Shown here: positions 1 to 54,958 of the stretch, piece after piece
Numbering within the stretch: position 1 is the first letter of the stretch
Layout of the letters: each line of letters opens with the position of its first letter
From: Ferrimonas futtsuensis DSM 18154
Lineage (GTDB): Bacteria > Pseudomonadota > Gammaproteobacteria > Enterobacterales > Shewanellaceae
Direction: 5' to 3'
NCBI RefSeq assembly: GCF_000422645.1
Contig: NZ_AUGL01000009.1
Location: 1-64,000 of the forward strand
DNA length: 64,000 nt
Program-made: the position numbers and the translations under genes
The notes under the pieces: generated by a model
What the model was told of the DNA's origin: nothing
The model's database searches: none
Seen by the model: only the letters and a program-made list of their open reading frames with translations

Positions 1-334
1 TGCCACGGCTTGATAACTCCGCTGACTCGCAACAACCTCACCAATGGCGGTTGAATTGCCTGGACTTCGACTCTGTTACCAGCCTCGTCAGTCAGGAGGT
101 TCATAATTAACGGAGCGATACCAGCACTTCAGGATCACGACAATCCCTATGGCCTATAAGATTCTCTGTGTACGCTTCACCCAGATTGTTCGATTGGTTG
201 TGGCTGCGCCACTGAAAAGCATCGGCTAATCCCTATCTCCGCCTTGGGCGCAACACTCGATACGGGTGACTGGTTAGGCCTTACCCGACGGGGACTTTCA
301 CCCCGCAAGATGCATCAAGCTTCGCTTGACGCAC
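1..334 (-). mobile_element. 5' part of a group II intron (domain I), truncated by the window edge
   Basis: Read on the minus strand from 334 leftwards, the sequence starts with GTGCG, the conserved 5' end of group II introns. A first stem-loop follows (312-332, arms GCGTCAAGC and GCATCAAGC on opposite sides of a GAA loop). Next comes the motif GGGGTGAAAGTCCCC, also typical of bacterial group II intron domain I. The rest lacks a long open frame, as expected for a ribozyme segment before the maturase gene, which would lie beyond position 1. The 5' exon ends ...AGCTGTTA and matches a second, uninterrupted copy of the same site near 40392. That fixes the junction at 334/335 and suggests the IIC-attC type, which targets integron recombination sites. 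The subclass is inferred. Confidence 0.82.
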
Positions 335-397
335 TAACAGCTTATTATGCGGCGACTTGCCGCCTATCACTCATTAAAACCTTGCCGCCTATCATAC
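335..397 (-). repeat. attI/attC-like recombination site A (intron 5' exon)
   Basis: On the plus strand this holds TAACAGC at 335-341, then GCCG at 359-362 and again at 384-387. The second and third units are part of a 13-base direct repeat (TTGCCGCCTATCA at 357-369 and 382-394), exactly 25 bases apart. The first of these repeats also closes a small palindrome (GCGGC ... GCCGC). On the minus strand the site ends in ...GCTGTTA, the start of an integron-type GTTRRRY core, and is then broken by the group II intron. A related site with identical spacing is at 40392-40447. The architecture (core plus two spaced direct repeats) resembles an integron attI. That name is an inference, since no integrase gene is visible. 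Confidence 0.6.
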
Positions 398-433
398 ATG
401 CACCAGTTCAGTGCAGATTCGGCAAGTCTCTAT

Positions 434-458: not shown

Positions 459-487
459 AAACTCAGTTCCTGCCATCAGAGTTGCGT

Positions 488-519: not shown

Positions 520-530
520 TGCCCACACAA

Positions 531-30326: not shown

Positions 30327-30514
30327 CGACGCATCCATTGCTAAGCTAAGTCTGCCAATCATAACGAGATTTCAGGCTTTGCTCTATGGCCCCGGACACT
30401 CAGGCGACCAAGGGGTGACAAATCCATCAAAGCAGCGGGTCACTGCCTGTGGCACCGGCCTGGCAACACTCGCTCTGGGTCATTCGATTTTGACGAACAA
30501 CCTGAGGATCCATT

Positions 30515-31917: not shown

Positions 31918-32015
31918 ACTCGACTTATCAATGCCATAAAATCGGCGTAACATATCGCCCCCTTGAACCGAATTCCGGCCCCCGGGCCACAATCCACATT
32001 AGGAATCACAGAGCC

Positions 32016-32864
32016 ATGCGTCGACTGATTGCCCTGCTGACCCTGGCGGTAGCCCCGCTGGTTTCCGCTCAGACCTTTACCTTCACCGCCATTCCTGATC
32101 AGGATGAGTCCAAGCTGCGCAGCCGCTTCGATCAGGTTGCCGACTACCTCTCCGGCGAACTGGGGGTCGAGGTGAAGTACATCCCGGTGAAATCCTACGC
32201 CGCCTCCATCACCGCGTTCCGCAATAACCAGGTCCAGCTGGCCTGGTTCGGTGGCCTCTCCGGCGTACAGGCCCGCGCCCGGGTGCCCGGCAGCGAAGCC
32301 ATTGCTCAGGGCTATGAAGACCAGTTTTTCAAGTCCTACATCATTGCCCACACCAGCACCGGCCTGGAAGCCGCCGCCTCCCTGCAGCAGGCGATGAAGG
32401 GGATGACCTTCACCTTCGGATCCAAAGGCTCCACCTCCGGTCGCCTGATGCCCGAATTCTACCTGCGTGAAGCCTTCCAGGAAGCGCCCGACAAGAGCTT
32501 CCGCAAGGTGGGCTTCAGTGGTGACCACAGCCGCACCATCGCCCTGGTTCAGGCAGGCAGCTACCAGGTTGGCGCGGTGAACTACAAAGTGTGGGAATCT
32601 GAGCTGGCCGCCGGCAAGGTGGACACCAGCAAGGTGAAGGTGATCTGGGAAACCCCCACCTACCCCGACTACCAGTGGACCATTCGCGGTGACGTGGACG
32701 CCCAGTATGGCGAAGGCTTCAAAGCCAAGGTGACCCAGGCGCTGCTGCAGATGAAAGATGAAAAGCTGCTGAACGCCTTCCCGCGCTCCAGCTTCGTACC
32801 GGCCACCAACGCCGACTACGCCCCCATCAAGGACACCGCCAAATCCATCGGCCTGATGGACTAA
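32016..32864 (+). CDS. PhnD-like ABC substrate-binding protein (putative selenate type)
   Basis: This 282-residue periplasmic protein has a signal peptide (MRRLIALLTLAVAPLVSA). The opening FTFTAIPDQDESKLRSRF and VQLAWFGGLSGVQARARVPG are characteristic of a branch of PhnD-like proteins annotated as putative selenate transporters. The hinge region GSKGSTSGRLMPEFYLR is the usual anion-binding Ser/Thr segment. Phosphonate, phosphite or another oxyanion is equally possible from the fold. It is the first gene of a three-gene transporter operon. No selenium-metabolism gene (selD, selU) is adjacent, so substrate assignment is tentative. Confidence 0.8.
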   Translation: MRRLIALLTLAVAPLVSAQTFTFTAIPDQDESKLRSRFDQVADYLSGELGVEVKYIPVKSYAASITAFRNNQVQLAWFGGLSGVQARARVPGSEAIAQGYEDQFFKSYIIAHTSTGLEAAASLQQAMKGMTFTFGSKGSTSGRLMPEFYLREAFQEAPDKSFRKVGFSGDHSRTIALVQAGSYQVGAVNYKVWESELAAGKVDTSKVKVIWETPTYPDYQWTIRGDVDAQYGEGFKAKVTQALLQMKDEKLLNAFPRSSFVPATNADYAPIKDTAKSIGLMD

Positions 32865-32871
32865 GGCGAGC

Positions 32872-33558
32872 ATGAGTGCTGAGCTGGCCCTGCAAGGGGC
32901 CTCACTGAAGATCGGTGACCAGTGGATCGTCAAGCCGCTGTCCCTGACCATACACGCCGGCCAGACCGTGGCCCTGGTGGGGGAAAGCGGTGCCGGCAAA
33001 TCCTCCCTGCTGGAGCTGCTGCGCCGCGCCCACGAGGACCAGGTCGCCTGGTGCCCCCAGCACCCGGCCCTGGTGCCCATGCTCAGCCTCTACCTCAATG
33101 TCTACATGGGCCGGCTCCATGAGTTCGGCCTGTGGCAGAACCTGGCCAACCTGGTCCGGCCCGATGCGGCCCAGTGGCGAGCCATTCAACAACTGGCCAA
33201 TGAGTTGGGGCTGCTCAACGGCAGTGGCGACCAGCGGCTGAGTCAGTCCGCCGAGCGCTTCTCCGGTGGCGAGCAGCAGAGAATCAACATCTCCCGGGCC
33301 CTGTTCCAGCAACGCCCCATCTTTCTGGGCGATGAACCGGTGTCTGCGGTGGATGAGGCTCAGGCCAGGCGCATCATCGAGCGCATCAAGGCCCATCACC
33401 AGACCACAGTACTGGCCCTGCACGACGTGGACCTGGCGCTGGCCTGTGCCGATCGCATTATCGGCATGAGTCAGGGTGAGGTGGTGCTGGATAAACCGGC
33501 TAATCAGCTGGATGCCACCACCCTGCTCACCCTCTACCCCAGTCATCAGCATGGCTGA
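32872..33558 (+). CDS. PhnC-like ABC transporter ATPase
   Basis: The 228-residue ATPase starts seven bases after the binding-protein stop. The Walker A GESGAGKSS (about 39-47), the signature FSGGEQQRINISRALFQ and the Walker B PIFLGDEPVSAVDE are intact, and the H-loop ALHDVDLAL follows. The stretch between Walker A and the signature, with the Q-loop at VAWCPQHPALVPMLSL, matches PhnC/SsuB-type importers. It energises the fused permease encoded downstream, whose start overlaps its stop by eight bases. Confidence 0.88.
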   Translation: MSAELALQGASLKIGDQWIVKPLSLTIHAGQTVALVGESGAGKSSLLELLRRAHEDQVAWCPQHPALVPMLSLYLNVYMGRLHEFGLWQNLANLVRPDAAQWRAIQQLANELGLLNGSGDQRLSQSAERFSGGEQQRINISRALFQQRPIFLGDEPVSAVDEAQARRIIERIKAHHQTTVLALHDVDLALACADRIIGMSQGEVVLDKPANQLDATTLLTLYPSHQHG

Positions 33559-35068
33559 GTCCCTGCCCAACCGGTCGAACAACCGGGCCGCCGAATTTCG
33601 TCGCATTACGCTGCTATTGGCACTGGCGGCGCTGTTGTGCCTGCCCTGGGCGGACCTGGAGATCACTCAGGTGTCCCCCGGTGCCGAGCTGGCCCGATTG
33701 GTGGCCGGCGCACTGAGCCCCGATTTCTTCGCCACCGAATACCTGCTGGAGGCAATTGCCACCACCCTGGCCTTCGCCCTGCAGGGGATCGCCCTGGCTG
33801 CCCTGTGCGGTTTGCTGCTGGCCCTGTTCTACCGCTACCCCGTGGTTCGGGTGAGCGCCGCCCTGCTGCGCTCGGTTCATGAACTGTTCTGGGCACTGAT
33901 GTTCCTGCAGGTGTTTGGCCTGAGCTCCCTCACCGGCGTCCTGGCCCTGTGGATCCCCTACACCGGCATCTTCACCAAAGTGTATGGCGAAATTCTGGAG
34001 GAGGTCGACCCGGCTACCGAGCAGGCACTGCCGAGAAGCGGCGGCATCGCCAACGCCATCAGCCGGCTCGTTTATGCCAGGCTGCCCCTGGCCTGGCCAC
34101 ACATCCGCCACTACACCAAATACCGGCTGGAGTGCGGATTGCGCTCCTCTGTGGTGCTGGGTTTTGTCGGCCTGCCCACCCTGGGCTACCACCTGGAGAC
34201 CGCCTTTCGGCAGGGGCTCTACGGCGAAGCCGCCGCCCTGCTCTATCTGTTCTACCTGATCATCGCCACCATGAAGTGGTGGTGCCGGGCGCCCCTGCTG
34301 CCCCTCTACCTGGGGCTGGCGCTGTGGTACCTGCCGCCGGTGGCCTCCATCAACGGTGAGCTGATCTTGCAGTTCTTCACCCAGGACATCGTGCCTGCGC
34401 CACTGAAAAACGGTGGCGAACTGTGGCCCTGGTTCCTGCGCCTTTGGCAGGAACAAATCTTCCCCGGGCTGACCGATACCCTGCTCCTGAGCCAGATGGC
34501 CCTGCTGCTGACCGCCCTGCTGACCCTAATATGGTTCCCCCTGCGCAGCCGCTGGTTCTTTGGCCGTCCCCTGCGCGCCCTGGGCCAGGGATTTCTGATT
34601 GTCACCCGCTCCACCCCTGAGTTCGTACTGGCGTTCGTCGGCCTGCTGATTCTGGGACCCAGCCTGCTGCCGGCCCTGCTGGCCCTGGGGATTCACAATG
34701 GCGCCATCATCGGCCATCTGGTGGGGGGCTACGCCCAGGAGCTAAAACTCAGGCCCGACGATGCCCCCACAGGCTACAGCCGGGTCGGGCTCTACTTCTA
34801 TCAGGTGCTGCCCAGGGTCTACCCGCAGTTGATCACCTGGCTGCTCTATCGCTGGGAGATCATTCAGCGGGAAACCGCCATTTTGGGAGTACTGGGGATC
34901 ACCACCTTGGGCTTCTACATCGACTCGGCGTTCGAGGAGTTCCGCTTTGACCGGGCCATGGTGCTGATTGGCGCCGCAGCGCTGCTAAACGTGGCAGTGG
35001 ATGCCACCGCACGGGCTCTGCGCGCCCGGCTGCAGCAGGGGGACCGACTGTCCCGGCGCGATGCTTGA
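33551..35068 (+). CDS. fused double PhnE-like ABC permease
   Basis: With the start at 33551 the protein has 505 residues. It contains two successive permease modules of about 240 residues each, with the EAA loops visible as YGEILEEVDPATEQALPRSG (first half) and GYAQELKLRPDDAPTGYSRVG (second half). Most phosphonate-type importers use one module per polypeptide as a dimer, so this is a natural fusion of both halves. The first in-frame ATG region upstream (33476) lies within the ATPase and is not used. It ends the operon. Confidence 0.85.
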   Translation: MAESLPNRSNNRAAEFRRITLLLALAALLCLPWADLEITQVSPGAELARLVAGALSPDFFATEYLLEAIATTLAFALQGIALAALCGLLLALFYRYPVVRVSAALLRSVHELFWALMFLQVFGLSSLTGVLALWIPYTGIFTKVYGEILEEVDPATEQALPRSGGIANAISRLVYARLPLAWPHIRHYTKYRLECGLRSSVVLGFVGLPTLGYHLETAFRQGLYGEAAALLYLFYLIIATMKWWCRAPLLPLYLGLALWYLPPVASINGELILQFFTQDIVPAPLKNGGELWPWFLRLWQEQIFPGLTDTLLLSQMALLLTALLTLIWFPLRSRWFFGRPLRALGQGFLIVTRSTPEFVLAFVGLLILGPSLLPALLALGIHNGAIIGHLVGGYAQELKLRPDDAPTGYSRVGLYFYQVLPRVYPQLITWLLYRWEIIQRETAILGVLGITTLGFYIDSAFEEFRFDRAMVLIGAAALLNVAVDATARALRARLQQGDRLSRRDA

Positions 35069-35259
35069 GGTCACTTTCCTGGCGTCTACCCAAAAGGGCG
35101 TCAATCGCCACGAAGCGGCCATCGGACAGTTTCAGTCAGCTCTGTCTCCATTGCCGCCTAAATTGACTATGAAACTCATAATACTATTTGCTCTGTATTT
35201 CTCGATTCGCTAATATTTGCGACATATTTCTACACTGTAGATATAGGTCGGATAGCAGT

Positions 35260-37527
35260 ATGCGAGCCATCAATATCATTAACGCGCACCACAACAACTT
35301 GAAGTCCGTCGACATTGCGATCCCGCGCAACCGAATCGTCTGTTTTGCGGGTGTATCCGGCTCAGGCAAGTCCTCCTTAGTGTTCGATACCATCCAGGCC
35401 GAGGCCCAGCGTCAGCTCTATGCGACCTTAGGCACCTATGCGCAGAATCACCTACCAACGATTCCCAAGCCGGATTGCGATTTGATCGAAAACCTGTCGC
35501 CGGCGGTAGTGATCCGCCAACAGCGCAGCCGAAGCAACGGCCGTTCGACCGTGGGCACGGTCAGCGAGATCGCCGCCTTTTTGCGCCTGCTATTCTCTCG
35601 TTTGGGTACGCCCCAGTTGGGTGCCTCCAACCACTTCTCCTTCAATAAACCGGAGGGTATGTGCCCGTGTTGCGGCGGCAGCGGGCAACTTATGGAGCTT
35701 GATGTTGACAAGGTATTTGATCGCAGCCGATCGCTAAACCAGGGGGCGATCCTGTTTCCAGAGTTTAAGGTGGATGGATGGCAATGGAAGTACATCGCCT
35801 ACTCCGGTTTCTTTGACCGGGATCGGCCGTTGCACCAATACGACGAGACGTTGTGGCACAGACTGCTGTACGGAATTGAGGAGAACGTCTCGCTGGACGG
35901 CGGCGATCTGGGGCTGACCATCACCTACGAAGGGGTGCTTCGTAAGATCCAACGCCTCTACATCCACAAAGATCAGGACAGCCTGTCGAGTCGCAAGAAA
36001 CAGGCGGTGGCGCCGTTCCTGTCGGTACAAACCTGCCACAGCTGCCAAGGTGCCAGGCTTAAAGCCGAGGCACTCTCAGTGACGCTTAACCGCGCCAATA
36101 TCCATACGGTCTCCCAGATGCAACTGGATACCTTGAGCGCCTACTTGGATGGGATCCAAGCTCCGCAAGCGGATACCCTGCTGGCACAGATCCGCAACAA
36201 GGTTAGGCATTTGGTCGAGATCGGCCTAGGCTACCTCTCGCTGTCCCGCCCTATCGCAACCCTCTCCGGTGGAGAAGCGCAGCGGTTGAAGCTGGCCAAC
36301 CAACTGGGCTCCAGCCTGACGGAGATACTCTACATCCTGGATGAGCCCAGTGTCGGCCTGCACCCCAAGGATGTGCATCAGCTAAACCGACTGCTTGCGC
36401 AGCTCAAAGATCAGGGCAACTCGGTGCTGGTGGTGGAGCATGATCCGGACGTGCTGGCCATTGCCGAGCATGTGATCGAGGTGGGCCCCAAGGCCGGCAC
36501 CCAGGGCGGCAACATCGTGTTTCAGGGCAGCTATGCGCAACTGCTAGAAGCGGACACCCTCACGAGCCGGGCCCTTAACGCGCCGCTGTCGGTCAAGAAG
36601 GCACCACGAAAACCAATGGGTCACCTGCCCATCCGCGAAGCCAACAGCCACAACCTGAAAAACGTCAGTGTGGATTTGCCCACTAGCGTGCTGTGCTGCC
36701 TCACCGGAGTGGCCGGCTCTGGCAAAAGCAGTTTGATCCATCACGAGTTCCTCAAACGCTATCCCGATGCCATCGTGGTAGACCAATCCGCCGTCGGCCA
36801 ATCCCAGCGCTCTAATACCGCCACCTACACCGGCCTGTTTGATGAGATCCGCAAGCAATATGGCAAGGCTAATATGGTCAAACCCTCGCTGTTTAGCTTT
36901 AATTCAGAAGGGGCCTGTCCAGAGTGCAAGGGGCTTGGGTTTGTCGAGATGGAGATGGCGTTTTTGGAACCGGTACGAACCCAGTGCAAGGCATGCAAAG
37001 GTAGCCGCTATGCCGAGTCCACCCTGCAATACAGACTAGCAGGGCTCAATATCGCGCAGTTGCTGGCGCTGACTGTGGATCAGGCCGCTGAGCTTCTCAC
37101 CGCACCCAAACTGGCCAAGCACCTGACCGTGCTGCAGCAGGTTGGATTGGGCTACCTGACTCTGGGACAGCCGCTCTCCACCTTGTCTGGCGGCGAATGT
37201 CAGCGCATCAAGCTCTCCAGCGAACTGCACAAGTCGGGTCAAGTTTACGTGTTGGATGAACCAACCACAGGGCTACATTTGTCGGACATCGCCCGGGTGA
37301 TGGCGATCCTTGAACGGCTGGTAGCCCAGGGCAACAGCGTTTACGTCATCGAGCACGACTTGGATGTGATCGCACAAGCCGATTGGGTGATCGATCTCGG
37401 CCCCCACGGCGGCGAACAAGGCGGTCAGATCGTCTTTGAAGGCACGCCTGGCGCGCTGCTGCAGGCCGAGCACAGCCATACCGGCCGTTACCTGGCTAAG
37501 TATCTGGCCCGGAGAAATAGCGCGTAA
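35260..37527 (+). CDS. short UvrA-like ABC ATPase (UvrA2/DrrC-like)
   Basis: This 755-residue protein has two ABC modules like UvrA but is about 185 residues shorter than canonical UvrA, the length of UvrA2/DrrC-type paralogues. Walker A motifs are GVSGSGKSSLVFD and GVAGSGKSSLIHHE. Signatures are LSGGEAQRLKLANQ and LSGGECQRIKLSSE. Walker B motifs are LYILDEPSVGLHP and VYVLDEPTTGLHLS. Zinc-binding cysteines occur in CPCCGGSG, CHSCQGAR and CPECKGLGF/CKACKGSRY. Members of this class lack the UvrB-interacting domain and are linked to drug tolerance or DNA damage. The upstream in-frame extension (from 35188) has no family similarity. It sits at one border of an accessory island. Confidence 0.85.
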   Translation: MRAINIINAHHNNLKSVDIAIPRNRIVCFAGVSGSGKSSLVFDTIQAEAQRQLYATLGTYAQNHLPTIPKPDCDLIENLSPAVVIRQQRSRSNGRSTVGTVSEIAAFLRLLFSRLGTPQLGASNHFSFNKPEGMCPCCGGSGQLMELDVDKVFDRSRSLNQGAILFPEFKVDGWQWKYIAYSGFFDRDRPLHQYDETLWHRLLYGIEENVSLDGGDLGLTITYEGVLRKIQRLYIHKDQDSLSSRKKQAVAPFLSVQTCHSCQGARLKAEALSVTLNRANIHTVSQMQLDTLSAYLDGIQAPQADTLLAQIRNKVRHLVEIGLGYLSLSRPIATLSGGEAQRLKLANQLGSSLTEILYILDEPSVGLHPKDVHQLNRLLAQLKDQGNSVLVVEHDPDVLAIAEHVIEVGPKAGTQGGNIVFQGSYAQLLEADTLTSRALNAPLSVKKAPRKPMGHLPIREANSHNLKNVSVDLPTSVLCCLTGVAGSGKSSLIHHEFLKRYPDAIVVDQSAVGQSQRSNTATYTGLFDEIRKQYGKANMVKPSLFSFNSEGACPECKGLGFVEMEMAFLEPVRTQCKACKGSRYAESTLQYRLAGLNIAQLLALTVDQAAELLTAPKLAKHLTVLQQVGLGYLTLGQPLSTLSGGECQRIKLSSELHKSGQVYVLDEPTTGLHLSDIARVMAILERLVAQGNSVYVIEHDLDVIAQADWVIDLGPHGGEQGGQIVFEGTPGALLQAEHSHTGRYLAKYLARRNSA

Positions 37528-37813
37528 GAGCTCTGTCGCTGGAGGGAGAATATATTTGAAGTAACTAGACACCAAATAAGGGGCTTAAAGGGTCAGAGTT
37601 GTGGATATGACGACTGACTGCTACTGACGCTGAAGCGAGTTATCACGGGATCATGCCCCTGGGGTTGGAGGCGCTGCCTGTCAATCAGGCTGCGCACGCC
37701 ACAAAGAGGTCATCCAGACTAGCAAAGCAGTGCCTCTTGGTTAGCTCTTTACACTGGTCAATCAGTCGGTGGGATTTTGTTTTACCCCATGACTGGGAGA
37801 AGGCTCATATGGG

Positions 37814-38857
37814 TTATGCGTAACTTACCGTTACTAACCTTACTTCTGTTGGCACTGCAAGATACTCATACACCGCCCGCACTTTTCTTACAAAATTCTC
37901 ATCTCTTGATAATAATACATTACAAAATGAGGCCATTGACGCGTGGCTATTATCGCTCATCGCGGCTATGAATCGTCTTTCCTTATGTACTTTGGAGTCA
38001 GGAAAATAACCAAGAGTGTTAAGCATGTTATACATACCGGTTATTTTCTGGTGTAGGTGGTAAGGTCTGTCAGGGTAGATCGGGTTTATACGGATCTGGA
38101 AAAAGTCTTCTAAGCTGTTGATGTGAGCGCTTTCTGGTAACTTAACGCTAACAGCATCCCATATCTTTTCGATCACTTTCGGTGGCTCTATATTATTTAA
38201 TTCCTTTGGGCCTATACCCACTGACTCTCTGTAGGACTTTATTCCATTCCACTCTGTCGTATCAGGAATATCTTTCGATATGGTATTTTCAAGCTCATGA
38301 AGCGTAGATTTATATTGTTCCATAATTAATTCGGAATACTTTTTAATCTGCGATCTCATTCCAACAGGAAGTTCATCAGCTTTTTCTAGCATACCGTCCA
38401 TAAGCTGTGCAAAGGCAGAAAGCTGTTCCTCATGAATATCGGAAATGCTATCCCCCATTCTTCCACCAGAAAACTTGAACAACCACTGGTTCATTGAACT
38501 TTCAATGTTTTCATGTTCATTATCATTGCTACAATATACTTCGAATGCTTCAAATACATCCCTGCAAGTGATGGTTGCTTTATCAGTGATAATGAATCCG
38601 GGTTGCTCAATAGCTATTTTTAAATGATATGAGCCGAGTTCTTTTAGTACATTTAGAAAGTCGTTTTCGTAGCCGGTAGATCGCCTTATCTCTTTAAGAG
38701 TTTCGTCAGAATAAACGATCTGGAACTTATCTATTAGTTCCTGCCCAAAACTACCGACGCCATTCTTAACGAAAAGATCGAGAATGTTTTGATCTAAGTA
38801 TAGTGTCGGTTTTCCTGAATATTTAGGTATAGAATCCATACTCATCTCTGATTGCAT
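37814..38857 (-). CDS. PIN-like domain protein (cassette-like gene 3)
   Basis: This 347-residue protein is read from the ATG at 38857, preceded by GTGGAG; an upstream ATG at 38977 lies in the previous gene. Residues 18-26 (TLYLDQNIL) resemble the first acidic strand of PIN nucleases (usually xxLDTNVL). DETLKEIRR follows near 50, and the C-terminal SDNSHASMASFC ... LLSRDENFVRKVRAVYEYL mimics the late acidic motif (around 302-330). I read it as a PIN-like RNase, for instance a toxin or abortive-infection protein, with a helical insertion between the halves. It has lower G+C than the flanking chromosome. No antitoxin-like gene is adjacent. The domain call is by pattern only. Confidence 0.55.
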   Translation of the reverse strand: MQSEMSMDSIPKYSGKPTLYLDQNILDLFVKNGVGSFGQELIDKFQIVYSDETLKEIRRSTGYENDFLNVLKELGSYHLKIAIEQPGFIITDKATITCRDVFEAFEVYCSNDNEHENIESSMNQWLFKFSGGRMGDSISDIHEEQLSAFAQLMDGMLEKADELPVGMRSQIKKYSELIMEQYKSTLHELENTISKDIPDTTEWNGIKSYRESVGIGPKELNNIEPPKVIEKIWDAVSVKLPESAHINSLEDFFQIRINPIYPDRPYHLHQKITGMYNMLNTLGYFPDSKVHKERRFIAAMSDNSHASMASFCNVLLSRDENFVRKVRAVYEYLAVPTEVRLVTVSYA

Positions 38858-38894
38858 GATGCTCCACTTAGCTGGATCAGCTTGCCCGGCTAAA

Positions 38895-38956
38895 CTATAC
38901 GAGGCACGAGCAGAACCGGGCTTGCCTAAATCCGCACTACAGTGCCTTATTATATG
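38895..38956 (-). repeat. attC-like imperfect inverted repeat
   Basis: The gap between the two cassette-like genes contains CTATACGAGGCAC (38895-38907) and, about 35 bases later, GTGCCTTATTATATG (38942-38956), which pair imperfectly. It begins right at the stop of the lipoprotein gene. The size and position fit a degenerate attC site, but clear GTTRRRY cores are not seen. Confidence 0.4.
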
Positions 38957-38957
38957 T

Positions 38958-39563
38958 CTAAATGGACTTGATTCCATTTTTTAAGATGAATTTCTCGTAA
39001 TAGGCTTTTATTGCCTCAATGTGTTCAGTTCCGAAGGAACGCTCAAAAGTCCCTTTTGAACCATATACTTTCAGCTCAATGGATTTTGCATTAGCCAGTC
39101 TTTCTATCTGGTCTGTCTTCAATGGATAGTGGGCTTCTTCCCTGATTCTTGTTCCAGCTACGGCACCAGCTAGCCCTTTCAGAATCCCTCGTTGATGGAG
39201 AGAACCAGATGGACTAATAAATGGCATCCTTTCTCCATCTACCATTAATACTAAAGATTCACCCGAGTTAATAAAAACCCAATCTTCAAAGTGTATTATT
39301 ACAGCTATGGAGATACCTAAACTATGACCATTTACATCTGTAAATATATCAATAAAGGCATCATCATGAGTAAGAAAAGGTGTCCCTGGCAAATGTCCAG
39401 TTGACGGTATTGAATAACGCTTAAAGTCTTTAAACTTATCTTCAGTTAATCTATAGCCAACTTCCATTTGATTTTGCTTTTCGACGACGGCACAGCCAAA
39501 CAGAAGAAAAGACAATAGCACAAATATTATATTCTTCACCTGAACCCTCCGATTCTTTGACAT
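38958..39563 (-). CDS. hypothetical lipoprotein (cassette-like gene 2)
   Basis: The protein is read from ATG 39563 (201 residues); the frame is open farther upstream, but that part overlaps the previous gene. The N-terminus MSKNRRVQVKNIIFVLLSFL continues into a lipobox (LLFGC), so it is a lipoprotein. The remaining residues contain mixed beta stretches (HSLGISIAVIIHFEDWVFINS, SLVLMVDGERMPF) and a short Gly/Ala segment. I do not recognise the family. The start codon lies directly at the end of the attC-like site, the normal position for a first codon in an integron cassette. Confidence 0.7.
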   Translation of the reverse strand: MSKNRRVQVKNIIFVLLSFLLFGCAVVEKQNQMEVGYRLTEDKFKDFKRYSIPSTGHLPGTPFLTHDDAFIDIFTDVNGHSLGISIAVIIHFEDWVFINSGESLVLMVDGERMPFISPSGSLHQRGILKGLAGAVAGTRIREEAHYPLKTDQIERLANAKSIELKVYGSKGTFERSFGTEHIEAIKAYYEKFILKNGIKSI

Positions 39564-39627
39564 ATAAGGCCCGCGTAATGGGCTGTTTTGTAGCGCCAGC
39601 GGAAAACCAGTTCCAATTGACGCTTTA
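39564..39627 (-). repeat. attC-like site between cassette genes 1 and 2
   Basis: On the plus strand GCGTAATGGGCTG (39573-39585) is complementary, with small bulges, to CAGTTCCAATTGACGC (39608-39623). On the minus strand the site runs from the stop of gene 1 to ...GGGCCTTATATG, where integron attC sites usually have GGGCGTTAT and then the next gene. The centre TTTTCCGCTGGCGCT is also a familiar attC type. The G of the core is a C here, so recombination activity is uncertain. Confidence 0.6.
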
Positions 39628-40377
39628 ATACTTTTCATGATTTGCTGCTGCATAACCGTCTTTGTATTCGCATGCTGGGCATAATTCAGCCATTTCGTCG
39701 TATTCACAAGCTGAATATATGTAAGGAGATTGGCACCACTTGCAATCTAAAACTTCCTCTTCATGGCTACAGACCAAACATATTTCATTGTCAATGTCGT
39801 AGGTCAAGTTATGGCAGGAGGTGCACTTTATAGTAGCAATATCTTCTGTTTCTATTTTTTCGTAAGCGGCCTTAAGATAATTGCTATAGAACTCTGTGTA
39901 GCTATATAGAACAGCAAAGCTATTTTCCTTTAAGTGCTTGGATTTCCAGTCCAAACTTAGATGCTCTTCAGAGAAATTAATGACAAATAGTAAAACCTGC
40001 CCAACTAATGCCTTTGCTTCTTGATCCGATATTGAAAATTCGAAGTGCTCGATTTCATTCCGCTTTTCCCTAGCGGTTTGAATAGCATTTAGATCATCGT
40101 CGCTAAACTTGATACCGCCGACTTTCTGCAGCCTTTTACAAGCAAGCTCACTACTAACAGTATGCTGAAACGGAGATGGGTATTTATCAACATTTGTAAA
40201 AACAAATGCTGGATGAATTTGCCTAAGCTTCTCTTTAAACAAAAGCTCTACAACGTGAGCAAGGTCAACAATAATCCTCTTCCAATTGCCGAGCCCTTTT
40301 TCCTCAATTGGCCCCATGTGCCTCAATGCATGCTCTAAAGAGTCACTAGCATTTTCTATTAGATTAAATTTGTTCAT
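39625..40377 (-). CDS. HEPN-like, zinc-ribbon protein (cassette-like gene 1)
   Basis: This is a 250-residue protein. The N-terminal 170 residues are helical and contain RNEIEH (106-111), the RX4H motif of HEPN ribonuclease domains, preceded by a helix with KEKLRQIHP. The C-terminal 60 residues have four CxxC pairs (CTSC, CLVC, CKWC, CPAC), probably two zinc ribbons. I read it as a possible RNA-targeting or nucleic-acid-sensing defence protein. The G+C is clearly lower than in neighbouring chromosomal genes. It starts about 15 bases after the recombination site at 40392 and is the first gene of the cassette-like series. Confidence 0.65.
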   Translation of the reverse strand: MNKFNLIENASDSLEHALRHMGPIEEKGLGNWKRIIVDLAHVVELLFKEKLRQIHPAFVFTNVDKYPSPFQHTVSSELACKRLQKVGGIKFSDDDLNAIQTAREKRNEIEHFEFSISDQEAKALVGQVLLFVINFSEEHLSLDWKSKHLKENSFAVLYSYTEFYSNYLKAAYEKIETEDIATIKCTSCHNLTYDIDNEICLVCSHEEEVLDCKWCQSPYIYSACEYDEMAELCPACEYKDGYAAANHEKY

Positions 40378-40391
40378 AAGTACTCAGTGAA

Positions 40392-40447
40392 GCCTAACAG
40401 CTACATATGCGGCAAATCGCCGCCTTTCACCCTGACCGAACCTGCCG
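40392..40447 (-). repeat. attI/attC-like recombination site B
   Basis: On the minus strand this ends with GCTGTTAGGC, a complete GTTRRRY core (GTTAGGC at 40398-40392). On the plus strand, TAAC (40395) is followed by GCCG at 40419-40422 and again at 40444-40447. These spacings (24 then 25 bases) are identical to site A at 335-387. Over 40 aligned bases the two sites share 30 identities. The first cassette-like gene starts 15 bases beyond the core. No integrase gene is found in the adjacent 40448-40602 stretch, which holds no gene. Confidence 0.6.
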
Positions 40448-40602
40448 TATATCTGCACTATGTCGCAGCGTGCTTGTTCGTGATTTTTTCAAATCTATCA
40501 GTGCATTAATCGGAGGTCAATCGCCTTGATTGCTCTACCATCAGCACGAAAAGCGGCTTTGTTCTACAGAAAAAGCGGCAACGTCGCCCATGGTAGACGG
40601 TA

Positions 40603-40833
40603 ATGGCCGGTTCTGGCGCCAAAGCAGTCATTGATCATTCGATGGAGTGCGACCCTCAGCTGGTGGCGGACGTCATCGTCAAAGCCGCCACGGTGAAACG
40701 TCCCAAGGCCCGCTTCGCCGCCCCTAAGGTAGCCAGTGTCGCCCTGTTCTGCCGCCGTTTTATGAGCGACGCCCTGCTCGACCGTCTGTTTGGCCGCTAT
40801 ATGGGCGTCCCGAAAAAAATCGGCATGAGTTAG
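40603..40833 (+). pseudogene. C-terminal remnant of an SDR-family oxidoreductase
   Basis: These 76 residues read like the last part of a short-chain dehydrogenase: PQLVADVIVKAATVKRPKAR is the usual substrate-loop/helix segment, and LFCRRFMSDALLDRLFGRYMG is the C-terminal helix. The Rossmann GxxxGxG and YxxxK motifs are missing, and no frame supplies them upstream. The gene has been cut by the insertion that brought the cassette-like genes, or by deletion. Its stop overlaps the AI-2E gene end. Confidence 0.65.
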
Positions 40834-41942
40834 TTCTCAGGCTCGGGATGAGGCTGAGCGGCGGTCTGTTCCGCCAGCCCTTCCCTGGCCAGCCAGGCGT
40901 CAAACAGCTTATAGCCCAGGGCCAGCGCCACGGCACCGACGAACAGGCCGATGATGCCGGAGAGCAGCATCCCACCGATGGCGCCGATCAGGATCACCAG
41001 CATGGGGATGTCCACCCCACGTCCCATCAGCATTGGCTTGAGCAGCGCATCACTGGCACTCACCAGAATCCCCCACACCATAAACACCACCGCCACCGTG
41101 GTGGATTGCACCGAGAACAGGTAGATCATCACCGGCGCCAGCACCAGTATCGGGGGCAGCTGCACTATGGCGACAATCAGCACCAGCAGCATCCACAGGC
41201 CCGTCGCCGGCACACCGGCCAGCCCCATGCCCACGCCCGACAACAGGGATTGGATCAGGGCGACCCCGATCACCCCCTGGGTCACGCTGCGGATGGTGGC
41301 CACCGACAGCGAGGTAAAATCCTCCCCCTGGGGACCGGCCATTCTCAAGGCGATGCCGTGAAACAACCTGCCTGCGGACTCGGCGTTACTCATAAAAACG
41401 CCGGCAATGATCACCGACACCACAAACTGCAACAGACCGACTCCGACACCACCGAGAGAGGAGGCCAGGGCTGCCAGACCATCCTTGAGTTGTGGACCAT
41501 AGCTGATCAGCGCCCCCTCCAGGTTGGTGGCAAACTTCTGCCACAGCTGATGCAGATCCTCCCCTACCAGGGGCAACCTGGCTACATCATCGGTCGGCGG
41601 TGGGATCACCAGGCTGCCCTCCTTGAGCTCCGTCACCAGTTCATGGGTCTCGGTGATCAGGGCACCGGAAAACAGAATGCTGGGCACCAGCAACAACGCC
41701 AACACCAGCAGGGTCATCAAGGTACTGGCATACCCCAATTTCCAGCCCATCCTGTCCGCCAGCCCCTTAACCACGGGAAACAGGGCGACGGCGATGATGC
41801 CACCCCACATGATCAGCACCAGGAAGGGGCGCACTATCTGGAAGCACCAGCTGATCAGGATAAACAGAGCACCGATCTTGACCGCGGCTTCCACCGCGGC
41901 TCCGGTCAGAAGCTGATGCTTGTCTTGCATTTGATGGTTCAT
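40830..41942 (-). CDS. AI-2E family transporter (second copy)
   Basis: This 370-residue multi-helix protein belongs to the AI-2E/TqsA family. It has an N-terminal helix pair (IGALFILISWCFQIVRPFLVLIMWGGIIAVALF) and C-terminal LLSGIIGLFVGAVALALGYKLF. Family members export autoinducer-2 or act as Na+/H+ antiporters; most are uncharacterised. It has the same length as the copy at 44245-45357 and is very similar, most visibly at the N-terminus and the C-terminus. Its ATG follows GGAGCC. It is the last gene of a four-gene minus-strand group. Confidence 0.85.
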   Translation of the reverse strand: MNHQMQDKHQLLTGAAVEAAVKIGALFILISWCFQIVRPFLVLIMWGGIIAVALFPVVKGLADRMGWKLGYASTLMTLLVLALLLVPSILFSGALITETHELVTELKEGSLVIPPPTDDVARLPLVGEDLHQLWQKFATNLEGALISYGPQLKDGLAALASSLGGVGVGLLQFVVSVIIAGVFMSNAESAGRLFHGIALRMAGPQGEDFTSLSVATIRSVTQGVIGVALIQSLLSGVGMGLAGVPATGLWMLLVLIVAIVQLPPILVLAPVMIYLFSVQSTTVAVVFMVWGILVSASDALLKPMLMGRGVDIPMLVILIGAIGGMLLSGIIGLFVGAVALALGYKLFDAWLAREGLAEQTAAQPHPEPEN

Positions 41943-41999
41943 GGGGGCTCCTTGTCGGTCGACAGGCTCTGAGGAGTGACGACCGGTAGCTAATGGGAT

Positions 42000-43022
42000 C
42001 TAGGACCCGAGAGAGACTCCCGGTCTGGATCGGCTTTCCAAAAAGTAGGAGATAAACACCATGTACGCCCCTACCATGGCGATCTGCAGTAACCTGAGGT
42101 AGAAGTTGCTCACCACCTCGGCGTCCGTGGACGAGGCGGTGGATCCCACCAGCACCAGCACCGTGGACAGGATTCCGGCGTAAAGGGGGGCCTTGTCAGG
42201 ATTGGCATAGAGGTAGCCAGCCAGCACCATAGTGACCAGCATCGCCAGTGCCACATAGAAGCCCAGGTAGGGCATCACCACCAGCAACTGATAAAACAGC
42301 ACCGCGATCACTCCCCCCACCCCATTGGTCACCAACAGGAACAGGCTCACCTTGACGCTCTTTGCGCCCGAGGCCTGCAGAGACAGCACCGCAATAAAGA
42401 TCATGGTCAGCAGGGCGTCACTCACCTGGGCCAGGAAGAAAAAACACACCACCGGGAAGGAGATCACCAGGGCGCGAATCGCCTCATCGGTGCGCACGTC
42501 CGCGTCTGGCAGGCACTCGGCGTCCGAAGTCGGATCGCCTTGAGCCTTCTCTTCGGGGAGCAGCAGATGCATCAGGGTAAACACCAACACGGCAACCACA
42601 CCGGAAAACGCCAGGCCGATGCCTAACTGCAGCGCTATCCCGGGGTGAAGCAAGCCCAGGTAGGGCAGCAACAGCGCAGCGATGATCAGCATGGAGGCGA
42701 AGAAGTTCCAACGAGGGTCGCTGAACAGGAAGTAGGCCCAGAGCATCACCAGTGCCAGCAGAGGCAGGAACACCAGCGGATAGTGAATGGGGCCGAAGCT
42801 GACTCCGAAGGCAATGACCACAGTCGCCAGGACACCGAACAGCAGCTCGCGAGCGGTTCCCCAGGTAGGCTCGACCCGCTCCACCAGAAACTTGGCGACA
42901 AACACCGGTGCGACGAACGCCAATGACCAGGCGATGGACGCCGACAGTGCCACCGAGAGGCCGACGCCCAGAGTCAGCCTGACGGCACGCCTGTCGCCGC
43001 TGGGGAGGCTCATCGGCGTCAC
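42000..43022 (-). CDS. DUF2955 (FUSC-like) inner-membrane protein
   Basis: The 340-residue protein has about ten hydrophobic helices in two groups, separated by a polar loop (EEKAQGDPTSDAECLPDADVR) near residue 175. It belongs by pattern to the DUF2955 family, which is related to aromatic-acid efflux proteins (AaeB/FUSC). Such genes nearly always follow a HlyD-type adaptor, as here, six bases downstream. The pair probably forms an efflux unit. The substrate is unknown. Confidence 0.75.
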   Translation of the reverse strand: MTPMSLPSGDRRAVRLTLGVGLSVALSASIAWSLAFVAPVFVAKFLVERVEPTWGTARELLFGVLATVVIAFGVSFGPIHYPLVFLPLLALVMLWAYFLFSDPRWNFFASMLIIAALLLPYLGLLHPGIALQLGIGLAFSGVVAVLVFTLMHLLLPEEKAQGDPTSDAECLPDADVRTDEAIRALVISFPVVCFFFLAQVSDALLTMIFIAVLSLQASGAKSVKVSLFLLVTNGVGGVIAVLFYQLLVVMPYLGFYVALAMLVTMVLAGYLYANPDKAPLYAGILSTVLVLVGSTASSTDAEVVSNFYLRLLQIAMVGAYMVFISYFLESRSRPGVSLGS

Positions 43023-43028
43023 CTTAAG

Positions 43029-44150
43029 TCATCGGACATAGGAGACCCAGCTGGCCAGGCGAATCCACAGCCAGCCCAGGCCATTGAGCAACATGCCGTC
43101 ACCGGTATAGACGATCACATCCGCCTGACCACCGACACGGCGATAACCATAAGCTTCACCGGGCTCCAGCACTATGGTCACAGGAAACCTCTGGCTCTGG
43201 CGCAGCCAACCGGTGTCGCTGGAGACCTGGGCCAGGCGGCCCACCTGCTCGTTCTGCCCCCAGTCCACCCCAAGATCGATGGACCCCAGCCTGCCCTGAA
43301 ACACCCTGCCCGGCGCGTAATCCAGGGTGAACTCCACCTGGTCCCCCGGCTTCATGTTCCCCAGGCTGTTCTCTCTGAAATAGGCCTCTATCCACACTTC
43401 ATCGGACGAGATGAAGGTCATCAGTGGCTGGCCGGCATTGGCGTAGACCCCCTCCTTGAGGCGGAAGTTGGAGGCCACCCCATCGGACGGTGCGACAATC
43501 TGGGTACGCGACAGGTTCAGCTGAGCCTGCTCTAACGCCAGCAGGGCACTGCGCACCTGGGTGTTGTTCTCTCCCTCCATCCCCAGTCGTTCCCGGGCTT
43601 TGGCGAGATCCGCTTTGGCACTGGCCAGGGTGGCTTCGGCGCTGGTCAGGGCCGCTTTGGCGTTGTCGGCATCCGCCTGGGACATTACGCCCCGTTCCAC
43701 CATGGCAAACACCCGGCGGGACTGCACCCGGGCATTTTGCAAATTGGCTTCGGCATTGGTGACCTTGGCCTGCGCCGCAGAGACATTGGCGGTCTGTACC
43801 CCCAGGCTCTGCCCCGCCTGCTTCAGATTCTGCTCCGCCTGCTGCAGGGCAATCTCATAATCCTTAGGATTGATCACCGCCAGCACCTCACCCTGTTTCA
43901 GCGGCGTATTGGGCTCTATCTTGATCGCCTGCAGTTCGCCTGAAACCTGGGGGGTGATGGGCACGACAAAGGCGCGAACCCGGCCCAGATCCGTCGAGGG
44001 GATCAGTCGGTCCGCAATCAGATGAAACAGGAACAGGACGACGACCACACCCAAAATCAGGTTGGTAATGCGCCTGATTTTGCTCTGTTCTTTGGCCCCA
44101 TCGCTCCCCTGTTGCGGTGGCTCTGGTGCCGTTTTTTCCTCATCACTCAT
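43029..44150 (-). CDS. HlyD-family adaptor (EmrA/AaeA-like)
   Basis: With ATG 44150, preceded by AGGGG, the protein has 373 residues. A short cytoplasmic N-terminus is followed by one anchor helix (LILGVVVVLFLFHLIADRLI). Then come a lipoyl half (VSGELQAIKIEPNTPLKQGEVL cut near 90), a coiled-coil hairpin of about 100 residues (AQAKVTNAEANLQNARVQS), the second lipoyl half IVAPSDGVASNF and the beta barrel. The family links an inner-membrane pump to the outer membrane. Its partner is the DUF2955 protein encoded just downstream. Confidence 0.85.
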   Translation of the reverse strand: MSDEEKTAPEPPQQGSDGAKEQSKIRRITNLILGVVVVLFLFHLIADRLIPSTDLGRVRAFVVPITPQVSGELQAIKIEPNTPLKQGEVLAVINPKDYEIALQQAEQNLKQAGQSLGVQTANVSAAQAKVTNAEANLQNARVQSRRVFAMVERGVMSQADADNAKAALTSAEATLASAKADLAKARERLGMEGENNTQVRSALLALEQAQLNLSRTQIVAPSDGVASNFRLKEGVYANAGQPLMTFISSDEVWIEAYFRENSLGNMKPGDQVEFTLDYAPGRVFQGRLGSIDLGVDWGQNEQVGRLAQVSSDTGWLRQSQRFPVTIVLEPGEAYGYRRVGGQADVIVYTGDGMLLNGLGWLWIRLASWVSYVR

Positions 44151-44244
44151 GCCCGCCCCTGGCTGCAGCGCGTTATCGAACACCTATTCAATGTAGAACA
44201 AGGTGTTCAAAACGCCGCCAGGGACTGGAAGAGATCGGTGTGGG

Positions 44245-45357
44245 TTAGCTTTTGGACCGCACGCGAGTCTGCGCGGCAGCCGCCTCTGGCAAATCCTCCT
44301 GGCCCAGCCAGGCGGTGAACAGTTTGAAGCCCAGGGCCAGCACCACGGCGCCGACGAACAGACCAATGATGCCGGAGAGCAGCAGGCCGCCGATGGCCCC
44401 CATCAGGATGATCAACATGGGAATGTCCACACCACGGCCCATCAGCAAAGGCTTGAGCACCGCATCGCTGCCACCGACCAGCAGCCCCCAAATCATAAAG
44501 GCCACCGCCACCGTGGTGTTGTCCAGGGAGAAGAGGTAGATCATCACCGGGATAAGCACCAGCAGCGGCGGCAACTGGAGTATGGCGACAATGAGGACCA
44601 GCAGCATCCACAGCCCGGTGCCCGGCACCCCGGCCAGCCCCATGCCAATACCGGACAGCAGAGCCTGAATCAGGGCGACGCCAATCACCCCCTGCATCAC
44701 ACTGCGGATGGTGGCCACCGCCAGGGCGTTAAAGCTGCGCCCCTGCTCGCCGGCCATGCGCATGGAGAGGTTGTAGAACAGGGCGCGAATGGAATCCGCA
44801 TTGGTCATCAGCACCCCGGCGATGATCACCGAGGCCACGAACTGCAGCAATCCCAAACCCAGGCTTCCGGCCATGGCCGCCACCTGGGAGAGCGCCTCCT
44901 TGATCTCGGGGCCAAAGCCCTCAAGGGCGGCCCCCAGGTTCACCGAGAACTTTTGCCACAGATCGTGCAACTCCTCCCCCACCAGAGGCAGCTGAGCGAT
45001 GGCATCGGAGACCGGCGGAATCACCAGGCTCCCCTCCTTGAACTCCGCCAGCAGGCTCTGGGTACCGGAGAACAGCGCCCCGGAAAACAGATAGGTAGGC
45101 ACCAGCAACACTGAGAGAGTCAGGATAGTCACCAGGCTGCTGGCCAGGCTTATCTTCAGCCCGAAACGACCGGAGAGCCAGCGCACCAAGGGAAACAGGG
45201 CGACGGCAATGATCCCGCCCCAGAGAATCAGCACCAGGAAGGGCCGCACTATCTGGAAACACCAGCTCAGAAGAATGAAGATGGCACCGATCTTCAGGGC
45301 TGCTTCAACAGCAGCGTCGGTAAATACTTGGCGCGTGGATTTTTCGTGGTCGTTCAT
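44245..45357 (-). CDS. AI-2E family transporter (first copy)
   Basis: With ATG 45357, preceded by GGAGCC, this is a 370-residue protein, the same length as the copy at 40830. The N-terminus (MNDHEKSTRQVFTDAAVEAA), the helix LLSWCFQIVRPFLVLILWGG and the C-terminus LLSGIIGLFVGAVVLALGFKLF match that copy almost helix by helix. It is the first gene of the group AI-2E, HlyD, DUF2955, AI-2E. The upstream extension to 45471 has no family similarity. The transport substrate is unknown. Confidence 0.85.
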   Translation of the reverse strand: MNDHEKSTRQVFTDAAVEAALKIGAIFILLSWCFQIVRPFLVLILWGGIIAVALFPLVRWLSGRFGLKISLASSLVTILTLSVLLVPTYLFSGALFSGTQSLLAEFKEGSLVIPPVSDAIAQLPLVGEELHDLWQKFSVNLGAALEGFGPEIKEALSQVAAMAGSLGLGLLQFVASVIIAGVLMTNADSIRALFYNLSMRMAGEQGRSFNALAVATIRSVMQGVIGVALIQALLSGIGMGLAGVPGTGLWMLLVLIVAILQLPPLLVLIPVMIYLFSLDNTTVAVAFMIWGLLVGGSDAVLKPLLMGRGVDIPMLIILMGAIGGLLLSGIIGLFVGAVVLALGFKLFTAWLGQEDLPEAAAAQTRVRSKS

Positions 45358-45586
45358 AACGGCTCCGTGCCGGTCAGGCGTGCCCTGCTTTTGAGTATGA
45401 CTTGTGCCACAACCAATGGCGCACCGCAAGGATTCGCTGAGATTCCAATAAATTGAGTGTAAATGGAGCAAAAAATCACCATCTGTCCCAGCGTTGGTTA
45501 GTCAAACGCCGAATTGATGGTCTGGCTCAGGGTTTTTCCGATGGATCTTGGCTAGAGTGCCGGGTCAACGTTTTAGGGAGCCCCAT

Positions 45587-46690: not shown

Positions 46691-46702
46691 GCGGCACACC
46701 AA

Positions 46703-54552: not shown

Positions 54553-54854
54553 TATAGTTGTGTTCCATTTACATGGTGACTTTCACAGACCGGCAACCCA
54601 GGTCCAACCTTGTCCTGAAGACGGCGCCGGTCCAAATCTGGCGGCCAGTGTACCCTATTTGCTCTGGCGTCGCGACGCACCTCCAAGAGCAAGAGCCCCT
54701 CTACGGGGCCTGGATCACGTTGAAAGAGGTGTCACTGCCGGCTGAGCACCGAGTGGCACAGGTCACCAAAACGTAACAGTGAGGCAGCGAAAAACACCCA
54801 TTCCACCCCGCTTGGCAACCTAATTGGTGCTGTGGTAGACTCGCCGCGAACATT

Positions 54855-54923: not shown

Positions 54924-54958
54924 CTTTAGCTTTTTTCCTTATAGAAAGGTAGAGACTC

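What the first reader, a model, noticed from the sequence alone, without database searches (positions are those of the whole stretch)
37814..40398. Orphan cassette-like array with HEPN and PIN-like genes
Three lower-G+C genes on one strand start directly after a GTTAGGC core. Inverted repeats of attC size lie between them, and one gene starts at a GGGCCTTATATG junction. The outer genes have two different RNase-type folds (HEPN motif RNEIEH; PIN-like YLDQN and late acidic motif). No integrase is nearby. It may be a small mobile defence cluster not described in this combination.
Basis: partly seen in the sequence, partly recalled or inferred. Interest (0 to 1): 0.72.

Follow-up and report, generated by a model that had tools for sequence, protein, structure and literature searches.

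The report
Extra integron docking sites without integrase
A marine bacterium appears to keep several extra 'docking sites' for captured genes scattered over its chromosome, all apparently meant for one recombinase made elsewhere, and this one holds three captured genes, two of which look like RNA-cutting toxins.

Summary
The observation largely holds and is part of something bigger. The GTTAGGC at 40398-40392(-) ends an attI-like site (40467-40395): a sequence model built without the window copy scores it 60.9 bits (E 5.5e-18). It lies in a ~240-bp cartridge with a promoter-like pair, followed by three low-G+C genes: HEPN fold, lipoprotein-like, PIN fold. The two internal junctions are decayed attC sites. 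No integrase is near; the genome's one good IntI is on another contig. So this is an attI-headed cassette array without an integrase.

The arrangement recurs: 8 of 14 same-genus (Ferrimonas) genomes have intI-less attI-like sites, homologous up to the crossover core and then followed by different DNA; 14 of 29 have attC within 5 kb downstream on the same strand. Of 21 non-P-type sites, 19 are nearest to the intI-linked attI of their own clade (6.1 in shuffles). Two single-contig genomes show it too.

Most likely one IntI served several attI platforms in trans; the window array then lost working attC sites. Relatives: CALIN/SALIN, delta-attI cassettes, attG insertions. I found no paper on such multi-attI genomes. 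Recombination in trans and phage defence are inferred, not shown.

The parts
40395..40467 (-). attI-like recombination site, ending at the crossover core GTTA(GGC); first cassette joined directly after it
   Evidence: R2 (14 sites, window copy not included) 60.9 bits, E 5.5e-18; similarity to intI-linked attI
40394..40638 (-). whole P-type attI cartridge (~240 bp), with dispersed relatives in 4 genomes; chromosome conserved with a sister species resumes at 40639
40492..40520 (-). promoter-like pair TTGACC-17-TAGATT inside the cartridge; an equivalent pair in 11 of 11 P-type copies
   Evidence: consensus match only
39625..40377 (-). cassette 1: HEPN-fold protein (Rx4H motif RNEIEH) with a C-terminal part of eight invariant cysteines, 250 aa
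39565..39626 (-). decayed attC between cassettes 1 and 2 (GGGCCTTATATG; relatives read GGGCGTTA)
   Evidence: not found by R1/R3
38958..39539 (-). cassette 2: lipoprotein-like, 193 aa (lipobox-like LLFGC, read by eye), no family match; alternative start 39563
38854..38954 (-). decayed attC between cassettes 2 and 3, of the genus' own attC family; TAAC became TAAT and GTTA became ATCA; hairpin lost
37814..38839 (-). cassette 3: PIN-fold protein, 341 aa, with a large helical insertion; invariant D16, E50, D296, D313
37715..37817 (-). element after PIN (103 bp, 78% to two places in G005; also in G008 and G011; 34 bp, 88% downstream of the PIN relative in G031); possible terminal site of the PIN cassette
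37625..37713 (-). 'A' element: in C18 and G008 C15 it directly precedes a P-type attI cartridge; here followed by only about 30 bases that resemble the start of a second cartridge (by eye)
335..403 (-). second intI-less attI-like site of the window (63.2 bits), with LexA-like box CTGTATATATATACAG about 200 bp upstream
7..298 (-). group II intron (RF02005, 94.3 bits) just after the GTTA of that second site

Best explanation
This is a small cassette array headed by its own attI-like site and promoter-like pair but without an integrase: one of several dispersed platforms in a Ferrimonas genome, served in trans by the single chromosomal IntI. IntI, made at another locus, would join a circular cassette to the GTT of the dispersed attI, and the cartridge promoter would transcribe the first cassettes. 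Shown by sequence: the site, its many relatives, the homology boundary at the crossover core, attC downstream of about half of them, absence of intI and of its remnants, and matching of the site variant to the resident intI-linked attI (for the non-P kind). Inferred: that IntI acts on these sites and that the promoter is active. In the window HEPN, lipoprotein and PIN cassettes were captured, after which both internal attC sites decayed, so the three genes are now probably locked in place. HEPN and PIN most likely act as RNases (toxin or abortive infection), by fold and conserved residues only.
For: Independent model hit E 5.5e-18 and direct similarity to intI-linked attI. 34 sites in fetched loci, 5 beside intI and 29 not. 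Core at the boundary: exact GTTA in 26 of 34, one-base variants in 6, degenerate in 2 (L133, L069); the 25 bases after it differ by eye, apart from one group II intron at four sites and a related first gene at two. attC on the same strand within 5 kb downstream at 14 of 29, opposite strand 0, upstream 3; 5 of 29 have under 1 kb of contig left. From the other side: in single-contig genome G001 three intI-less attC arrays are headed by close copies of G001's own attI variant. 19 of 21 intI-less non-P sites are nearest (ties counted) to the intI-linked attI of their own clade; shuffles mean 6.1, 0 of 20,000 reach 19. Forward test: the attI beside G010's intI found five further copies in G010 at E < 1e-11; three of these five loci have attC downstream on the same strand. 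No intI remnant (tblastn E up to 0.1) upstream of 32 of 32 sites, 3 of 3 positive controls found. One IntI above cut-off per genome, in 10 of 14.
Against: Recombination in trans is not shown; these could be relics. At 15 of 29 sites no attC was counted within 5 kb downstream. P-type cartridges, the window's kind, are further from intI-linked attI and were left out of the clade test. Sites in related species can be shared by descent (W_335 and L130 look like one locus), so counts are not independent events. The HEPN-lipoprotein attC rests on homology only. G008, with the most sites, has a TGA inside its IntI frame. No dispersed site was found in G004 and G006, which have intI, though their own attI was not used as query. 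Some attC clusters (L157, L158) have no attI head that I could recognise.
Confidence: 0.72

Rival explanations
1. Degraded integrons: each dispersed site was once a complete integron (intI-attI-array) whose intI was deleted, leaving a CALIN with its attI. They are fossils, not platforms.
For: [quoted passage not shown] A LexA-like box is kept upstream of 10 of 18 non-P intI-less sites, as beside intI (5 of 5). Window attC sites are decayed. G008's intI frame has a TGA.
Against: No intI remnant at 32 of 32 sites; the attI variant follows the resident clade's intI-linked attI, which old independent integrons need not; attC sites in several intI-less arrays score like those of the main arrays; P-type cartridges are beside no intI in the loci held.
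Confidence: 0.15
2. Off-target insertion: IntI put cassettes into chance attG-like secondary sites.
For: attG insertion is known (Loot 2024, seen only as cited in PMC12444791); single stray attC sites are reported in Shewanella (SALIN, passages). May explain L157 and L158.
Against: The receiving sites are homologous over 70-240 bp and end at the crossover core.
Confidence: 0.05
3. On how the cartridges spread (not exclusive of the best explanation): the cartridge is a cassette-like unit moved by IntI as an attI-ended cassette (A-B unit excised by attC x attI).
For: In G011 a P-type site is preceded by an attC that ends about 310 bp upstream, where A-like sequence begins (R3 30.0 bits; sequence); in C18 and G008 C15 an attC-like end precedes A-B by eye. 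Delta-attI-ended cassettes recombine with IntI1 (abstract and part of the introduction of PMC12901181).
Against: Seen only for P-type sites; 3 of 29 sites have attC within 5 kb upstream; no circular form or target-site pattern tested.
Confidence: 0.2
4. An ordinary chromosomal three-gene operon of low G+C.
For: Same strand, close spacing, one promoter-like pair ahead.
Against: HEPN and PIN are not found together in any other of 394 genomes; junctions are attC relics; locus differs in sister species G011.
Confidence: 0.03

Closest known systems
CALIN / SALIN (attC clusters or single attC without integrase)
   Same: Cassettes with attC-type sites, no intI nearby; said to be mobilisable in trans (passages of PMC9024848, PMC12444791, PMC9229058)
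   Different: Here arrays are headed by a homologue of the resident attI; CALIN is defined by attC alone, and IntegronFinder 2.0 states that attI is not detected outside class 1
Chromosomal integron of the same genome (intI at C25)
   Same: Very similar attI core; attC of the genus' family; same group II intron at attI as at the window's second site
   Different: No intI at the window site
Delta-attI-type gene cassettes of mobile integrons (PMC12901181, abstract and part of introduction read)
   Same: attI-derived sites away from intI, recombined by IntI1
   Different: Those replace an attC at a cassette's end inside one array; here attI regions head separate arrays across the chromosome
attG insertions (Loot 2024, seen as cited in PMC12444791 and PMC12901181; not read)
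   Same: Cassettes outside the integron
   Different: attG sites are described as divergent from attI and attC; these are homologous to attI over up to 240 bp
HEPN proteins in integron cassettes (PMC3710099, passages read)
   Same: HEPN protein as a cassette; the authors suggest an RNase that induces dormancy
   Different: This one matches PADLOC PDC-S64 and DUF3644-type models; I did not compare it with their integron family (PDB 3jrt)

Membership tests
Complete integron | intI gene beside attI | tested here: not met
   No IntI similarity within 3 kb upstream; genome's IntI on C25
Complete integron | attI site receiving cassettes | tested here: met
   attI-like site, E 5.5e-18, by sequence only; activity not tested
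Complete integron | functional attC sites | tested here: not met
   Core letters mutated; z -0.80 and -0.15 versus -2.03 and -2.61 for two intact sites; by prediction only, and one relative with an intact core (L064) also folded poorly (z 0.66)
CALIN | at least two attC sites without integrase | tested here: inconclusive
   One attC by covariance model, a second by homology only; R1 and R3 miss it
Dispersed attI-headed arrays (this work) | attI homology ending at the crossover core, then unrelated DNA | tested here: met
Dispersed attI-headed arrays (this work) | recombination by IntI in trans | not testable with these tools
   Needs an experiment
HEPN RNase | HEPN fold | tested here: met
   Best Z 10.3, rmsd 2.9, 122 aligned (2hsb, HEPN AF_0298); most of the top rows are HEPN-type proteins by title or by my knowledge; Foldseek alone: no match at E 0.001
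HEPN RNase | Rx4-6H motif | tested here: met
   R106 and H111 invariant in 5 of 5
HEPN RNase | RNase activity or phage defence | not testable with these tools
   PADLOC PDC-S64 match 3.4e-27 names a candidate family only
PIN RNase | PIN fold | tested here: met
   Best Z 11.1, rmsd 2.6, 121 aligned (VapC 3zvk_C, 132 residues); top rows are VapC and other PIN-type nucleases; Foldseek alone: no match at E 0.001; no Pfam match
PIN RNase | conserved acidic residues | tested here: met
   D16, E50, D296, D313 invariant in 8 of 8; their catalytic role is by analogy
VapBC toxin-antitoxin | cognate antitoxin gene beside the toxin | tested here: inconclusive
   No antitoxin family match for the neighbouring lipoprotein-like and HEPN genes, but both are of unknown function
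attG insertion | receiving site not homologous to attI | tested here: not met
   Receiving site homologous over about 240 bp to copies elsewhere and, at its end, to attI

The most novel reading that the evidence does not exclude
Ferrimonas runs a distributed integron: one SOS-controlled IntI serves up to about ten attI platforms over the chromosome, each with its own promoter or LexA-like box, so that a captured gene can be placed in several independently expressed first positions. The attI cartridges are themselves copied by IntI (as attI-ended cassettes following an attC), and their sequence is kept in step with the resident integrase. The window array is one such platform, later frozen by attC decay around two RNase-type genes.
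Probability: 0.4. Interest if true: 0.86.

Novelty: new variant of a known kind. Interest (0 to 1): 0.75.

Why it matters
Integrons are described as having typically one attI close to the integrase, so that the cassettes nearest to it are the ones most likely expressed (PMC9024848, passages). If one integrase serves many attI platforms, that limit is relaxed, and some arrays now filed as degraded CALINs would be working expression sites. The same paper says that attI is not detected outside class 1 integrons, so the pattern could easily be missed. It also gives a direct test: does a Ferrimonas IntI insert cassettes at the intI-less attI sites?

Tried and rejected
Generic AAC/GTT hairpin scan for attC: no candidate at the three window junctions, as expected if the core letters are mutated; replaced by homology and covariance models. 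Rfam had no match at E up to 1 in 36000-42000. R1 and R3 miss the HEPN-lipoprotein junction. Folding of the junctions supports no working hairpin at any of three window junctions; one relative with an intact core (L064) also folded no better than shuffles, so folding energy alone is weak evidence.

Pfam and NCBIfam: no match over a curated cut-off for the three proteins. PHROGs: HEPN matches of unknown function, best E 2.1e-6. PADLOC for PIN: only E 0.018. PDB sequence profiles: nothing convincing. Plasmid collection: no DNA match; 15 records with HEPN relatives and 2 with PIN relatives, all under 60% identity; no lipoprotein match. The lipoprotein was not searched in whole genomes. Viral contigs: exact attI pattern absent. 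Whether the HEPN relative in G191 (68%) is a cassette stayed open. In G235 the PIN relative is followed by an attC-like repeat, but R3 gives it only 18.2 bits, E 0.69.

Counts and dropped rows. In the attC-downstream count I used coordinates typed and left out four weak R3 rows at attI loci: L139 7270 (E 0.026) and L068 7482 (E 0.083), both downstream; L133 8626 (E 0.7) and L069 6952 (E 0.012), both upstream; also rows in loci without an attI-like site. Intact attC sites, being palindromic, also give weak reverse-strand hits; none is at the 29 sites. The clade test used 18 non-P sites plus three found from attC clusters, counted ties as nearest, and left out the 11 P-type sites; the two misses are L070 and L142. 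A further G001 copy, L174 (1025565), was seen later and is in no count. G010 matches in contigs C29, C9 and C4 are weak (E 0.003 to 0.04) and were not counted. Of the five strong G010 copies my motif read out two (L169, L173), and R3 found attC in three (L169, L173, L175); L167 (near a contig end) and L171 gave neither. R2's whole-genome search used stricter filters that lose weak matches: it missed G010. The four genomes without a good intI (G003, G007, G009, G013) gave no R2 site; G013 still has two attC hits.

Literature: searches in the held open-access library. 'Ferrimonas' with 'integron': 0 papers. No listing or passage that I saw describes several attI sites served by one intI; most subscription papers are not held. 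Listings were seen, passages read for PMC9024848, PMC12444791, PMC3710099, PMC10127599 and PMC9229058, and the abstract and part 1 of 2 of the introduction for PMC12901181; no paper was read whole.
Full report
WHERE IT IS. The window is G000:C7:1-64000 of a 4.3-Mb, 39-contig genome. A degenerate attI pattern matched only Ferrimonas sediminum DSM 23317 and F. kyonanensis DSM 18153 in the collection of 84,980 species genomes (4 stretches; the window's own genome may be left out there).

THE OBSERVATION. Three ORFs on the minus strand lie in DNA of 39% G+C. GTTAGGC is expected 4.9 times in the window and occurs 4 times, so the motif alone is no evidence. Its context is. Bases 40394-40638 have relatives of about 230 bp elsewhere in this genome and in same-genus genomes. 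The last 37-71 bases match the region beside intI, where the first cassette starts, in five genomes (G000, G011, G002, G005, G008). An attI-like model (R2) from 14 sites without the window copy finds 40467-40395(-) with E 5.5e-18, and a second site in the window, 403-335(-), with E 1e-18. Eight of the 14 model sites are P-type like the window's, so the BLAST matches to intI-linked attI (E 4e-7 and 1.5e-6 for the best) are the more independent evidence.

THE JUNCTIONS. A covariance model (R1) from 23 same-genus attC sites, window copy left out, finds one site in 64 kb: 38954-38854(-), 81 bits, E 8.5e-25, between the lipoprotein and PIN genes. The family reads TAAC...GTTA; the window copy reads TAAT...ATCA, and the strand that IntI would recognise no longer folds into the attC hairpin (z -0.80; two intact sites -2.03 and -2.61). 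The HEPN-lipoprotein junction is 87-91% identical over 57-62 bp to sites in G071 and G043 and 82-83% over 47-49 bp to sites in G040 and G031; all four read GGGCGTTA where the window has GGGCCTTA, and R3 recognises those of G040 and G031 as attC but not the window's. After PIN lies an element also seen in three same-genus genomes and, in part, after the PIN relative in G031. So the cassettes look locked in place.

THE PROTEINS. HEPN: model pLDDT 86.7; best fold match an HEPN protein (Z 10.3, 122 aligned, 2.9 A); Rx4H and eight cysteines invariant in 5 of 5; PADLOC candidate family PDC-S64, E 3.4e-27. PIN: model pLDDT 88.3; VapC-type PIN domains lead (Z 11.1, 121 aligned, 2.6 A), around a large insertion; D16, E50, D296, D313 invariant in 8 of 8. 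Foldseek alone gave no match at E 0.001 for either. Middle gene: lipoprotein-like by eye, no match. HEPN matches occur in 7 of 394 genomes of the order and PIN matches in 12 of 394, of which those of G001 and G002 begin in translated attC; only the window's genome is in both lists.

THE WIDER PATTERN. Ten of 14 same-genus genomes have one IntI above the family cut-off; that of G008 has a TGA inside. R2 finds attI-like sites in 7 of 77 genomes of the family, all of the same genus (7 of 14), none in the other 63 (stricter filters). In the loci I fetched there are 34 such sites, 5 beside intI and 29 not. The boundary core is exactly GTTA in 26 of 34, a one-base variant in 6 and degenerate in 2 (L133, L069); the 25 bases printed after it differ from site to site by eye, except for one group II intron at four sites and a related first gene at two (Rfam confirms the intron at three). 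attC on the same strand within 5 kb downstream: 14 of 29; on the opposite strand: 0; upstream on the same strand: 3; 5 of 29 have under 1 kb of contig left. No intI remnant upstream of 32 of 32 sites (3 kb each, two shorter), with 3 of 3 positive controls found. Two kinds exist: P-type (11 of 34, window site included; none beside intI) with a TTG...-TA...T hexamer pair 113-129 bases before the crossover, and the other kind, of which 5 of 5 intI-linked and 10 of 18 intI-less sites have a LexA-like CTGT-N8-ACAG about 200-213 bases before it.

INDEPENDENT CHECKS. (1) From attC clusters instead of attI: in single-contig genome G001 the attC model gives several clusters; three without intI (L154, L155, L156) are headed by close copies of G001's own attI variant, which differs from that of other species; L157 of G001 and L158 of G011 have no attI that I could recognise. 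(2) Of 21 non-P intI-less sites, 19 are nearest to the intI-linked attI of their own clade (6.1 on average in 20,000 label shuffles, none reaching 19), 13 to that of their own genome (3.6, none; ties count as nearest). Shared descent makes sites non-independent, and the shuffle does not correct for it. (3) Forward test: the attI beside intI in G010, a genome where R2 had found nothing, was used as query and found five further copies in G010 at E < 1e-11. The query ends at the crossover, so the end of these matches is no evidence; but the two that I read out carry different DNA afterwards and three of the five loci have attC downstream. G001 and G011 are single contigs with sites hundreds of kilobases from intI, so contig breaks are not the cause.

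MECHANISM. Most likely: trans-acting IntI, several attI platforms, cartridge promoters for the first cassettes, later loss of attC in the window. By sequence: sites, boundaries, attC, lack of intI, clade matching. Inferred: recombination in trans, promoter activity, RNase action. How the cartridges spread is open. For P-type sites an A-B unit between an attC end and the attI core is seen in G011 (attC by R3) and by eye in C18 and G008; that would fit an attI-ended cassette, a type reported to recombine in class 1 integrons (PMC12901181, abstract and part of the introduction). Inversions between attI and attI-like sites are another reported reaction (PMC10127599, passages).

LOCUS HISTORY. Against sister species G011 the stretches 28555-35036 and 40639-48142 are 91% and 88% identical; between them the window has a UvrA-like gene plus the array and G011 has other DNA. 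The gene that spans this point in G011 is cut at 40639 in the window (read).

KNOWN VERSUS NEW. CALIN and SALIN, HEPN cassettes, attG insertion and delta-attI cassettes are known. I found no description of intI-less arrays each headed by the resident attI (searches; open-access library only).

Noticed in passing
window 7-298(-); L071 8047-8338; L010 4440-4731: The same group II intron (RF02005, 94.3 bits) sits just after the core of three attI-like sites of this genome, and by sequence also in G011 (L058), so it may target attI rather than attC.
   Followed up: partly
window 335-550(-) and nine other intI-less sites, also L154: A LexA-like box CTGT-N8-ACAG is kept upstream of intI-less attI sites although intI is absent; cassette expression there may be SOS-controlled.
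   Followed up: partly
window 35188-37527(+): A second UvrA-like protein (ABC and UvrA DNA-binding matches) beside the array: its C-terminal 341 residues have no match above 49% identity among the best matches in 13 same-genus genomes.
   Followed up: no
window 54838-54937(+): Purine riboswitch (RF00167, 75.3 bits).
   Followed up: no
window 40610-40640(-); L010 3045-3081; G005:C29:293140: A short repeat (about AATGACCG..GGCGCC..CGGTCATT) begins P-type cartridges and occurs in part elsewhere without a cartridge.
   Followed up: no
L062 9038-9517; L140 2134-2928: Of ten first genes of dispersed arrays tested, one is a HEPN pEK499_p136 protein (Pfam, 8e-37) and one a PDC-S31 defence candidate (PADLOC, 4.5e-22); the other eight had no match or one weak one.
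   Followed up: partly
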